A stretch of 32,388 bases of DNA. It comes from Planctomycetota bacterium (lineage in GTDB: Bacteria; Planctomycetota; MHYJ01; JACQXL01). Position numbers and translations under genes: made by a program. The stretch is taken from NCBI GenBank assembly GCA_016208805.1, contig JACQXL010000097.1, positions 2,780 through 35,167 of the forward strand. The letters are read 5' to 3'. The notes beneath the pieces are model-generated. The model saw only the letters and a program-made list of their open reading frames with translations. It was not told where the DNA came from and did not search any database. This document shows positions 15,088-26,616 of this stretch, one piece after another. Each line of letters starts with the position of its first letter. Position 1 is the stretch's first letter.

Positions 15088-15418
15088 TTTTACCGGTGCG
15101 GGAACCATCCTGAGCCGTTGGGGGAATTACGCCGAGCCGTTGCGGGTACTACCCTGAACCGTTCCCGGACAGCCCCTGAGCCGTTCCCGGATAGCCCCTG
15201 AACCGTTGCCGGGTTATCTCGGAGCCGTTGCCGGATAACCCCTGAGCCGTTGCGGGATATTACCGCAACCATTGCTGGGGTATCCCTGAGCCGTTGGTAG
15301 ATAGCCCCGTAACCGTTGACAGGATACCCCTGAGCCGTTCAGCCCTACAGCCGCAACGGTGGACGGATAACTCCTGAACCGTTCCCGGAACTACCCCCGA
15401 CGGCTCACGGAACTATGG
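15088..15418. repeat. 22-bp tandem repeat array 1 (about 13 units plus degenerate edge units)
   Basis: From 15110 every unit is exactly 22 bp, e.g. CTGAGCCGTTCCCGGATAGCCC, CTGAACCGTTGCCGGGTTATCT, CGGAGCCGTTGCCGGATAACCC; the unit start at 15374 = 15110 + 12x22. Confidence 0.9.
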
Positions 15419-15507
15419 ATGGGGGTATAGGGGAGGTAGGGATAGGGTATGGCCACCCCCTTTCCGGTTAAAAACCGCTTCCAGGGGGACGATTTGTGCG
15501 TAATTGC

Positions 15508-15546
15508 AGTATGTCCTAAAGGAAAATAGGCCATACTACCTTTAGG
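15508..15546. repeat. 39-nt interleaved inverted-repeat (A-B-A'-B') element, copy 1
   Basis: AGTATG-T-CCTAAAGG-AAAATAGGC-CATACT-A-CCTTTAGG. Confidence 0.7.
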
Positions 15547-15667
15547 GAGGTGGAATTAAACTGGGATTTTGACGCTAAAAACTTGACTTTTGGGTGGCAA
15601 AGTTAAAATTACGGTTGACAGTCAAGCCCAAATTTAACATTGGACACAAAGGAGAGATGGTTTTTAT

Positions 15668-16126
15668 ATGGGTAGACGAGCGGCGCTTTTTATCCGGTTG
15701 ACCACCCAGCAGTCGGTTGAGTTAGAGGTCTTTATGCGCGAGATGGCGCGTCGGGGAAATCGCCGCGCCCGCCTCAGGGGCAATGCCATATTCTTATCTT
15801 TTCAATACGGCTGGACCGCCCAAAAGATTGCCGGCCACCTGAACTGCTCAACGCCGTCCGTGGTAAGTTGGCTAAAGCATTATCAGGAAAAAGGCATTGC
15901 CGGCCTATACGACATCCCGACACCAGCGCGGCGGCTGACGCCTTTTCAGGTTGAACAGATTACCGGGGCGATGTATGATATCACCCAGGCCAAATCCAAA
16001 CGACGTTACCGCAAACGACTGAGTTACCGCGAGACCGCCAGATTAGTCAAGGAAAAATACGGCATAAATATCTCGTACGAACGCGTCCGCCAGATTGTCC
16101 GGCAAAATCTTCTGGGTGCAAGATAA
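15668..16126 (+). CDS. HTH-only DNA-binding protein related to IS630/Tc1-type transposase N-terminal domains
   Basis: Two HTH segments, 'WTAQKIAGHLNCSTPSVVSWLKHYQEKGIAGLYD' and 'SYRETARLVKEKYGINISYERVRQIVRQNL'; no DDE domain follows because the ORF ends and the converging aminotransferase begins. Confidence 0.8.
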   Translation: MGRRAALFIRLTTQQSVELEVFMREMARRGNRRARLRGNAIFLSFQYGWTAQKIAGHLNCSTPSVVSWLKHYQEKGIAGLYDIPTPARRLTPFQVEQITGAMYDITQAKSKRRYRKRLSYRETARLVKEKYGINISYERVRQIVRQNLLGAR

Positions 16127-16131
16127 TGCGG

Positions 16132-17202
16132 CTACGGCTGGATGCACTTCTGAACGTTCTCAATGATATAATCTGTCTGTTTGCCGGTCAGTGACGGATA
16201 AATCGGGAGCGAGAAAGCGGTGCGGTAGGTCTTTTCGGTGACCGGGAAATCCTTCGCAGACAGGCCCAGATAGTGGTGCAAGGGCTTATAGACCGGCCGT
16301 TTTGTCTCTATGCCCTTGCTGTTCATGTATTTGATTATCCGGTTGGCTTGAGGATGCCTGAGCACATAACGATAAAATATGCCGGTATCTATAGGTAATC
16401 TAACCCCCTCACCCTCCCCTCTCCCACTAGGGGAGAGGGTGAGAGAAGATAACGCCTGATTGTATCTATGAGCGGTTTGCTGTCTTTTTCTGATAAAACC
16501 CGGTAGTTTCTTTAACTGAACCAGTCCGACCGCGGCCTCAAGGTCGGTCATCTGGTAGTTATATCTTATTTTATAATCATCACATTCGTCAAAGTCCCTT
16601 AAATTCCTGATACGCAGAATAAACTTGGTATCGTTTGAGGCGACGGCGCCGCCGTGGCCGGCCGTGGTGAGCATCTTGGTGGCGTAGAAGGAAAATATAG
16701 CGGCGTGACCGAATGTGCCGACTTTCTTACCATTGTAAGTAGCGCCAATACTCTGGGCGCAGTCTTCAATGACCGGCACGCCCAACTTCATAAATTTATC
16801 TATCTGCGCCGGGATGCCAAATAGGTGCGGGACGATAATCGCTTTAGTGCGCCCGGTTATTTTACGCTGGGTTGAATCAGGGCAGAGGTTAAAACTTTCG
16901 TCAATATCAGCCAGCACGGCTTTGGCGCCGGTATAATTGACCGCATTCAAGACGGCCGGGCAGACATAAGAAGGGATGATAGCCTCATCGCCGGGTTTAA
17001 TTCCCATTCCTAAAAGGCAGAGATGGAGCGCAGATGTGCCGGAATTGGTCGCAACCGCACCAGATAGGTGATGATAGCAGGCGATGGCCTTCTCAAATGC
17101 CCTGACCCGCTCGCCCTGGGCCAGGTAGTTGGAGTGGAGTGTCCCGGCCAATGCTTTTTGTTCTTCCTGGCCTAATGTAGGCATTGAATGGGGAATAATC
17201 AT
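16132..17202 (-). CDS. DegT/DnrJ/EryC1/StrS family PLP aminotransferase
   Basis: 'GTSALHLCLLGMGIKPGDEAIIPSYVCPAVLNAV', 'IEDCAQSIGATYNGKKVGTFGHAAIFSFYATKMLTTAGHGG'. ATG at 17202 (MIIPHSMPTLG) is preferred; the 17331 extension is translated from a palindromic repeat. Confidence 0.9.
   Translation of the reverse strand: MIIPHSMPTLGQEEQKALAGTLHSNYLAQGERVRAFEKAIACYHHLSGAVATNSGTSALHLCLLGMGIKPGDEAIIPSYVCPAVLNAVNYTGAKAVLADIDESFNLCPDSTQRKITGRTKAIIVPHLFGIPAQIDKFMKLGVPVIEDCAQSIGATYNGKKVGTFGHAAIFSFYATKMLTTAGHGGAVASNDTKFILRIRNLRDFDECDDYKIRYNYQMTDLEAAVGLVQLKKLPGFIRKRQQTAHRYNQALSSLTLSPSGRGEGEGVRLPIDTGIFYRYVLRHPQANRIIKYMNSKGIETKRPVYKPLHHYLGLSAKDFPVTEKTYRTAFSLPIYPSLTGKQTDYIIENVQKCIQP
16402..16446. repeat. 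Palindromic element inside the DegT aminotransferase CDS
   Basis: CCCTCACCCTCCCCTCTCCC-ACTA-GGGGAGAGGGTGAG; encodes 'SSLTLSPSGRGEGEG'. Confidence 0.75.
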
Positions 17203-17253
17203 AACTATTGGTCTGTCACACCTCAAGTGATGAATAATACCCTCTCTCTGTTT

Positions 17254-17311
17254 GTCACTCCTGCGAAAGCAGGAGTCCATCCTTCTGGATTCCCGCTTTC
17301 GCGGGAATGAC
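17254..17311. repeat. GTCATTCCTGC-type palindromic repeat (double hairpin)
   Basis: GTCACTCCTGCGAAAGCAGGAGTCCA...TGGATTCCCGCTTTCGCGGGAATGAC with complementary halves; related copies at 23201 and 31951. Confidence 0.75.
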
Positions 17312-17411
17312 AGGCGAGGGAAGGCATTCATTAAATTACATGTGACGAACCACTATTCCCTATTATCAAATGCCGTAACTTATATCAAGAATTTCTAACC
17401 CGGATTATTCA

Positions 17412-17432
17412 TCCCGACACATCGTGTCGGGA
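17412..17432. repeat. 21-bp palindrome TCCCGACACATCGTGTCGGGA
   Basis: Complementary arms; the same family at 23227-23247 and 27916-27936. Confidence 0.75.
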
Positions 17433-17457
17433 TAACGGCGGGATAAAGGACCCTCCA

Positions 17458-17765
17458 TTGTCGCTATAGGTGGTATCCCTTGTGGCAATAGGAGGTGTCC
17501 CTTGTGGCAATAGGGGGTGTCCCTTGTGGCAATAGGGGGTATCCCGTGTGGCAATAGAAGGTATCCCTTGTGGCAATAGGAGGTATCCCTTGTGGCAATA
17601 GGGGGTGTCCCGTGTGGCAATAGGGGGTATCCTTTGTGGCAATAGGGGGTACCTCTTGTGGCTATAGATGGTATCCCTTGTGGCAATAAGGGGTATCCCT
17701 TGTGGCAATAGGGGGTGTCCCTTGTGGCAATAGGGGGTATCCCGTGTGGCAATAGGAGGTATCCC
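17458..17765. repeat. 22-bp tandem repeat array 2 (14 units, 308 bp)
   Basis: Consensus TTGTGGCAATAGGGGGTATCCC; all 14 units are exactly 22 bp; first unit 17458, last unit starts 17744 = 17458 + 13x22. Confidence 0.97.
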
Positions 17766-18000
17766 GCTACCATACTCCTACCCCTCCTATACCCTACCCC
17801 CCCACTCCTTTTTATCCTTAAAATCGGTTCAAAACAGCCCAAATAGGGCAGATGTATGCTATAACAACTGATTTGGCAATAGGTTATTAAGAGTGCCAGA
17901 CGAATTTTATTTGCAGGGATTTAGCCGTATTTTCTTGACTTTTAGGGCTTAATATGAAAAAATGGTTTGCGTCGTAAGGTAAATCTCATCTTTCAGAAGG

Positions 18001-18492
18001 GTGTTTTTGATGTCCAGAAGGCATATCTTTATAAAACTAAACGAGTCAGAGTTAAAAGAACTCCAGGAGTTTGCCTCTGAGATGGCCCGCGAAAAGAAGT
18101 TAAATACCAGGCGGAGAGCCAACGCCTTGGCGTGGTCATTCCAGCAGGGTTGGTCGGTTCAACAGATTGCCCGGGATTTAAACCGCACCCCACGCACCAT
18201 CTATAACTGGTTCAAACGGTATAAACAAAAAGGTATTGCCGGATTATATGATAAGCCCAGACCTGCTAAACTCACCAACGTACAAATCATAGAGATGATG
18301 CGGACGAACCACTGGATATATACGGATGACAAGACCTATCAGATGAGATGGAGTTTTCAGAAGATGGCTAAATGGGTGAAAGAGAAATGGGGTATTGAAC
18401 TTTCCGCCGAGCGCATCAGACAGATTATCCGCCGGAAGAATGACGCCCCGTTCTTTTATTTAGAAATAATCAATAACCCGAACCCGCCTTAG
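18001..18492 (+). CDS. HTH-only DNA-binding protein, paralogue of 15668..16126
   Basis: 'WSVQQIARDLNRTPRTIYNWFKRYKQKGIAGLYDKPRPAKLT' and 'FQKMAKWVKEKWGIELSAERIRQIIRRK' align along the length of the first HTH protein; no DDE domain downstream. Confidence 0.8.
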   Translation: MFLMSRRHIFIKLNESELKELQEFASEMAREKKLNTRRRANALAWSFQQGWSVQQIARDLNRTPRTIYNWFKRYKQKGIAGLYDKPRPAKLTNVQIIEMMRTNHWIYTDDKTYQMRWSFQKMAKWVKEKWGIELSAERIRQIIRRKNDAPFFYLEIINNPNPP

Positions 18493-26407: not shown

Positions 26408-26616
26408 GATAACTTGTGTACGCTCGTCCATAACCCGTGGTCTCAAGACCATAACTCGTGGTCTCAAGACCATAACTCGTGGTCTCAAGACCATAACTCG
26501 TGGTCTCAAGACCATAATCCGTGGTCTCAAGACCACAACCCGTGGTATCAAGACCGTAACCCGTAGTCGCAAGACCATAACCCGTAGTCTCAAGACCAGA
26601 ACTCGTGGGCAAGTCC
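26408..26616. repeat. 21-bp tandem repeat array 3 (8 full units plus degenerate ends)
   Basis: Consensus CATAACTCGTGGTCTCAAGAC, exact 21-bp period from 26429; each unit plus its junction holds the palindrome GGTCT-CA-AGACC. Confidence 0.95.

What the first reader, a model, noticed from the sequence alone, without database searches (positions are those of the whole stretch)
15088..18492. Duplicated 'tandem 22-bp array + HTH-only protein' modules: candidate undescribed array-binding system
Seen directly: two loci ~2.4 kb apart share the same order on the plus strand: a strictly 22-bp-periodic array (15088-15418; 17458-17765), then a G/C-run block, then ~200 bp of leader, then a ~155-aa HTH protein (15668-16126; 18001-18492). 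The two proteins are paralogues along their length and both stop after the second HTH. The array units differ but share GGATAnCCCCT: array 1 rotated is GGATAACCCCTGAGCCGTTGCC; the complement of array 2 rotated is GGATACCCCCTATTGCCACAAG. Both leaders contain CTTGACTTTTnGGG. Established: these HTH folds resemble IS630/Tc1-type transposase DNA-binding domains. Inference: these are domesticated DNA-binding proteins that bind their own array. A 22-bp period is about two helical turns, so sites would sit on one DNA face and allow cooperative filament-like or autoregulatory binding.
Basis: partly seen in the sequence, partly recalled or inferred. Interest (0 to 1): 0.78.

Follow-up and report, generated by a model that had tools for sequence, protein, structure and literature searches.

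The report
Dispersed 22-bp repeat arrays with DNA-binding genes
These bacteria carry on the order of a hundred small DNA elements between their genes, each built around a tandem repeat of exactly 22 letters but with unrelated repeat sequences, and a minority carry a small DNA-binding protein gene; this fixed length and the link to the protein are unexplained and testable.

Summary
Two 22-bp arrays, each followed by a G/C-run block, a leader and an HTH-only gene, are at the stated places. Two details fail: the claimed shared unit motif is not above chance, and ORF 2 probably starts at ATG 18010. Homologues occur only in a few related genomes, and most have a 22-bp array within 600 bp (9 of 11 in one relative against 8% of ordinary ORFs). 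The "dedicated array plus its own protein" reading is only partly supported. In 1.2 Mb of that relative I found 43 other 22-bp arrays without any HTH gene. Array families recur at several loci with sharp edges and unrelated flanks, so they behave as dispersed MITE-like elements. Some copies are solo, some carry the leader, and a few carry the gene. Arrays and genes are partly decoupled: an 89%-identical protein pair has unlike arrays, a 44%-identical pair shares an array type, and one locus joins a foreign array to a known leader-gene cassette exactly at the G-block. The nearest known kind is the BrickBuilt minisatellite MITE of Porphyromonas gingivalis. Best reading: a new variant, with many unrelated units of one fixed length and an IS630-type DNA-binding domain kept under purifying selection. 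What the protein binds and what moves the elements are untested.

The parts
15088..15418 (+). Tandem array 1, 22-bp units (about 15), unit GCCGTTGCCGGATAACCCCTGA
   Evidence: related arrays in the same genome at G000:C5:1644-2112 (67%), C203:1-359 and C242:4856-5105 (90%)
15421..15460 (.). G/C-run block 1 (GGGGGTATAGGGGAGGTAGGGATAGGGTATGGCCACCCCC)
   Evidence: read from sequence; such blocks (run of 6 or more G or C) lie within 100 bp of 49/72 22-bp arrays against 4.4% of control gaps
15461..15667 (+). Leader 1 with TTGAC at 15569, 15583 and 15615; repeated-unit homology ends at 15642/15643
   Evidence: two solo copies stop at the same point, 25 bp before the ATG
15508..15546 (+). 39-bp core of a short dispersed repeat inside leader 1 (interleaved inverted repeats AGTATG/CATACT and CCTAAAGG/CCTTTAGG)
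   Evidence: about 12 further partial copies at 79-100% identity in the same genome; absent from the otherwise matching solo copy in L080
15668..16126 (+). HTH-only protein 1 (152 aa, HTH_23 + HTH_32)
17454..17771 (+). Tandem array 2, 22-bp units (14.2 copies, 87%), unit TCCCTTGTGGCAATAGGGGGTA
   Evidence: only one other weak match in the own genome (C183:23-250, 66%)
17770..17809 (.). G/C-run block 2 (C-rich on the plus strand)
   Evidence: class statistics
17810..18009 (+). Leader 2 with TTGACT at 17935 (promoter-like, 17-nt spacer)
   Evidence: consensus match only
18010..18492 (+). HTH-only protein 2 (160 aa from ATG 18010; bipartite HTH with a wing)
   Evidence: AlphaFold2 model of the family, pLDDT 84

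Best explanation
The two modules belong to a lineage-specific class of dispersed intergenic elements. Each element is a tandem array of 5-20 copies of a unit exactly 22 bp long, bounded on at least one side by a G/C-run block. Longer forms add a leader, and the longest carry a small HTH-only gene. Shown: the elements recur at unrelated loci with sharp edges, unit families are unrelated to one another apart from length, and array and leader-gene parts can be exchanged at the G-block. Inferred: the elements are copied or moved by a transposase or recombinase supplied in trans. The HTH protein is the kept DNA-binding half of an IS630/Tc1-type transposase, now an element-encoded DNA-binding protein that acts on the elements' shared parts (G-block or leader), on the array, or on both, most likely as a repressor or accessory factor. 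The constant 22-bp length suggests protein contact at fixed helical phase, but this is not shown.
For: Genome-wide arrays: 43 of period 22, 18 of period 21 and only 3 of any other period from 9 to 33 in 1.196 Mb of G002 outside HTH loci. None of period 22 in 347 kb of eight genomes of the same phylum (family to phylum level), 12.5 expected. Unit families recur at several loci with sharp borders and unrelated flanks. L072/L073 share about 870 bp from array through gene stop at 92%. Solo copies of window module 1 lack the gene and stop at one point. G-blocks in 49/72 against 4.4%. L154 carries a different array joined at the G-block to the L073-type leader and truncated gene. IS630 model matched only at positions 4-108 of 299. 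dN/dS 0.07-0.30. HTH-array linkage p=7e-9.
Against: No consistent terminal inverted repeats or target-site duplications were found, no empty site was available (the relatives are other genera), and no partner transposase was identified, so mobility is inferred from dispersal. Recombination could also spread the arrays. Solo arrays carry no HTH relics except L154, so they need not derive from gene-bearing forms.
Confidence: 0.6

Rival explanations
1. One reading: each HTH protein binds its own array cooperatively, one protein per 22-bp unit, for autoregulation or filament formation, so the protein sets the 22-bp period.
For: Strong linkage of gene and array. Two-part HTH of a kind that could span about 20 bp (Tc3/mariner domains among the weak fold matches). 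In HTH 1, positions aligned by the W motif with homeodomain base-contact positions (69, 73, 76) are among the most variable (the homeodomain comparison is from memory).
Against: Array type does not follow the protein beyond recent duplicates. L088/L089 proteins are 89% identical with unlike arrays; L079/L084 are 44% identical with the same array type. Single-HTH proteins have arrays of the same 22-bp period, often on the 3' side. Most arrays have no HTH gene.
Confidence: 0.25
2. The HTH proteins recognise the conserved G-block or leader that all modules share, and the array is a passenger minisatellite.
For: The G-block is the shared DNA feature across modules with unrelated arrays. Homology between L154 and L073 starts exactly there. 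The second recognition helix (ERxRQI) is well conserved.
Against: G-blocks also flank arrays without HTH genes, so another factor could use them; G-rich, G4-type sequence (23/72 against 0.8%) may act without a protein.
Confidence: 0.3
3. No function: arrays are minisatellites grown by slippage and homogenised locally, and the HTH genes are decaying pieces of an IS630-type element.
For: Several HTH copies carry stops or are truncated; solo arrays are common.
Against: Purifying selection on intact copies. Dozens of unrelated units all of 22 bp with almost no other non-coding period is not expected from slippage alone.
Confidence: 0.15
4. Plasmid-like iterons or a partition centromere, bound by the neighbouring protein to support replication or segregation.
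For: Period of about two helical turns and a small HTH protein next to the array resemble iteron and centromere arrays (established knowledge; no tool result).
Against: On the order of 100 arrays per genome on large contigs between ordinary genes, with no replication or partition gene linked.
Confidence: 0.03

Closest known systems
BrickBuilt MITE of Porphyromonas gingivalis (PMC4596501)
   Same: Dispersed, strictly intergenic element with an internal array of 23-nt tandem repeats without spacers, flanked by leader and tail, many copies partial; no transposase inside.
   Different: BrickBuilt is one repeat family of 19 copies with IS5-type inverted ends; here there are dozens of unrelated unit families of one fixed length, G/C-run blocks instead of clear inverted ends, and some elements carry an HTH gene.
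IS630/Tc1/mariner transposases
   Same: Two-part HTH DNA-binding region (NCBIfam IS630 model positions 4-108 of 299, below cut-off).
   Different: The proteins end where the DDE domain would begin; no catalytic domain, no matching transposon ends found.
REPIN-RAYT systems (PMC3116915)
   Same: Many short extragenic copies spread within a genome, with a linked gene at only some of them.
   Different: REPINs are palindrome doublets moved by a tyrosine transposase; here arrays of direct repeats and an HTH-only protein.
CENP-B, and Cbp1/Cbp2 CRISPR-repeat-binding proteins
   Same: HTH proteins that bind repeated DNA (works-like analogy); Cbp2 structure 2lvs is the only PDB sequence match (E=0.0018); CENP-B comes from a transposase (established knowledge).
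   Different: All matches weak (fold E 0.85-2.4; Cbp1 model 16 of 140 bits); no spacers in the arrays, no centromere.

Membership tests
MITE with internal minisatellite (BrickBuilt type) | Multiple intergenic copies at unrelated loci with sharp borders | tested here: met
MITE with internal minisatellite (BrickBuilt type) | Internal tandem repeat without spacers | tested here: met
MITE with internal minisatellite (BrickBuilt type) | Terminal inverted repeats and target-site duplications | tested here: inconclusive
   Borders lie at G- or C-runs, with no consistent inverted repeat or duplication
MITE with internal minisatellite (BrickBuilt type) | Ends match a resident autonomous transposon | not tested
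   No candidate autonomous element was identified; transposase ends were not searched systematically
IS630 family transposase | N-terminal bipartite HTH | tested here: met
IS630 family transposase | DDE catalytic domain | tested here: not met
   ORFs stop after the second HTH; model positions beyond 108 unmatched; no such domain in Pfam
CRISPR array with Cbp-type repeat-binding protein | Repeats separated by unique spacers | tested here: not met
   Units are contiguous, unit to unit
REPIN-RAYT | Linked HUH/Y1 tyrosine transposase | tested here: not met
   Linked proteins are HTH-only
Iteron or partition locus | Linked replication or partition gene | tested here: not met
   No recurrent Rep/Par-like neighbour among ORFs clustered around arrays, judged by sequence; the unknown families there were not resolved

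The most novel reading that the evidence does not exclude
A genome-wide network in which HTH-only proteins of transposase origin bind 22-bp arrays, and the fixed protein spacing on DNA imposes the 22-bp unit length on dozens of otherwise unrelated repeat families, forming a satellite-like binding landscape in a bacterium.
Probability: 0.2. Interest if true: 0.85.

Novelty: new variant of a known kind. Interest (0 to 1): 0.62.

Why it matters
Bacterial genomes rarely hold satellite-like DNA. Here one lineage has an estimated hundred intergenic arrays that share nothing but an exact 22-bp unit length, with a small DNA-binding protein linked to a subset. This offers a tractable case for asking how a repeat length is kept while its sequence is replaced, how minisatellite-bearing elements spread, and whether a transposase DNA-binding domain has been reused as an array-associated protein.

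Tried and rejected
Coding arrays: example units (e.g. the L068 type) contain stops on both strands, seen by inspection. RNA structure: mean z of -0.64 against unit-preserving shuffles, 15% below -2, no common fold; no Rfam match in the window. Universal dyad symmetry: 12/74 units with z>2, mild only. Common ancestry of all units: pair similarity near the reversed-unit null (6.5% above its 95% level). Phage or plasmid origin: no relatives in viral contigs and none in named genomes (patterns cover only part of the family). Insertion sequence aimed at arrays: its end lies in 2 modules but also at 9 other sites, so it is not specific. Defence link: only weak HTH matches in PADLOC.

Full report
What is in the window. 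The two arrays are real and far beyond chance: lag-22 autocorrelation 0.61 (array 1) and 0.86 (array 2) against shuffle maxima of 0.36 and 0.39 (TRF). Each is followed by a G/C-run block, a leader with a TTGACTTTT motif and an HTH-only gene. Both proteins match HTH_23 and HTH_32 and other HTH models only. The claimed common unit motif is not above chance (8.8 of 22 matches, null 95% 9.4). ORF 2 most likely begins at ATG 18010.

Homologues. Searches of the own genome, of 59 relatives and of 392 genomes of the phylum place the family in five genomes of one small order (G000, G002, G003, G005, G007); the few other hits are longer, transposase-like proteins or weak HTH matches. Scans of viral and named genome contigs found none. 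There are long proteins of about 150 aa with two HTHs and short ones of 80-95 aa with one. TRF finds a 22-bp array upstream of 11 of 13 long genes; of the other two, one is cut off by an insertion-sequence end at a contig end and one has a degenerate array by eye. Short genes have the array on either side, more often 3'. In G002, 9 of 11 homologues lie within 600 bp of a 22-bp array against 82 of 1012 ordinary ORFs (p=7e-9).

The key revision. An 800-kb sample of G002, taken outside the HTH loci, held about 35 22-bp arrays and no HTH gene. Extended to 1.196 Mb it holds 43 arrays of period 22, 18 of period 21 and 3 of all other periods from 9 to 33. Scaled to 2.7 Mb this is on the order of 100 22-bp arrays per genome. 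Eight genomes in which the long family was not found had none of period 22 in 347 kb, 12.5 expected; the caveat is that their contigs are mostly short and could break at arrays. The arrays lie between ordinary genes. A run of six or more G or C lies within 100 bp of 49/72 22-bp arrays, 2/22 21-bp arrays and 4.4% of control gaps, so 21-bp arrays are a separate class.

Elements, not isolated arrays. Clustering of unit profiles gives families that recur at different loci, for example L068/L069 (with HTH) with L138/L139 (solo), L072/L073 (HTH) with L117/L183 (solo), L076 with L153, L078 with L134, and several all-solo families. Members share array, G-block and sometimes leader, with unrelated DNA outside. 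L072/L073 share about 870 bp from array through the gene stop at 92%. In the own genome, the non-coding part of window module 1 has a copy at 90% (C203 and C242, probably two halves of one element broken by assembly) and one at 67% (C5). The C203 and C5 copies stop at window position 15642/15643, 25 bp before the ATG; at C5 the gene is seen to be absent. No consistent inverted ends or target duplications were found, so mobility is inferred.

Array and protein are partly decoupled. Protein and unit similarity correlate only because of recent duplicates (r=0.33, p=4e-4; without three of them r=0.11, p=0.10). L088/L089 are 89% identical (L089 has one stop) with unlike arrays. L079/L084 are 44% identical with one array type. 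In L154 the L073-type G-block, leader and truncated gene start is joined to another array, with homology beginning exactly at the G-block. This argues against a strict one-protein-one-array code but does not exclude binding.

The protein. The NCBIfam IS630 model is matched only over its HTH part, below cut-off. AlphaFold2 gives two HTH units with a wing (pLDDT 84, pTM 0.58). Fold matches to mariner, Tc3, TnsB, CENP-B and Cbp2 are all weak. dN/dS of 0.07-0.30 shows selection on intact copies. Recognition helices are relatively conserved, while some possible contact positions are variable, so the target cannot be read from sequence.

Mechanism and novelty. Most likely these are minisatellite-bearing, MITE-like elements of the BrickBuilt type (PMC4596501), some with a retained transposase DNA-binding domain acting on element DNA. 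New here are the many unrelated units of one exact length, the G-block junctions and the HTH cassette. Repression or an accessory role for the protein is inference.

Noticed in passing
window 26428-26608: 21-bp tandem array (8.6 copies, 90%) between two minus-strand genes; part of a separate class of 21-bp arrays without G-blocks, several next to 22-bp arrays or to a 220-aa protein family of unknown function (L130, L144, L145, L149).
   Followed up: partly
window 15508-15546: Short repeat with interleaved inverted repeats, about 12 more partial copies dispersed in the same genome.
   Followed up: partly
L137:4491-5351 and homologues: Family of about 280-aa proteins with 15-33 copies in each of G000, G002 and G005, no Pfam, NCBIfam, PHROG, PDB or fold match; 5 of the members in the sampled G002 stretches lie within 800 bp of a 22-bp array.
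   Followed up: partly
L137:3556-3939, L117:377-832, L150:15964-16455: Second small unknown family (MSYKAFKGKW...) next to 22-bp arrays, nearly restricted to G002.
   Followed up: no
L068, L069, L148, L150: HTH_17 (excisionase-like) proteins of about 260-350 aa next to arrays; directly downstream of the HTH-only gene in L068/L069.
   Followed up: partly
L106-L116 (contig ends of G005 and G007): Identical end of a multi-copy insertion sequence (...ATTATTCAACAGAGCAG) at 11 sites, abutting GG in all but one (L091, where it abuts CGG inside the array); a second site lies at an HTH module's G-block.
   Followed up: partly
L082:10653-10839 and L154:12132-12344: Unlike 22-bp arrays after the same ftsQ-like gene in two genera, either repeated insertion at one site or an old array whose units were replaced.
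   Followed up: no
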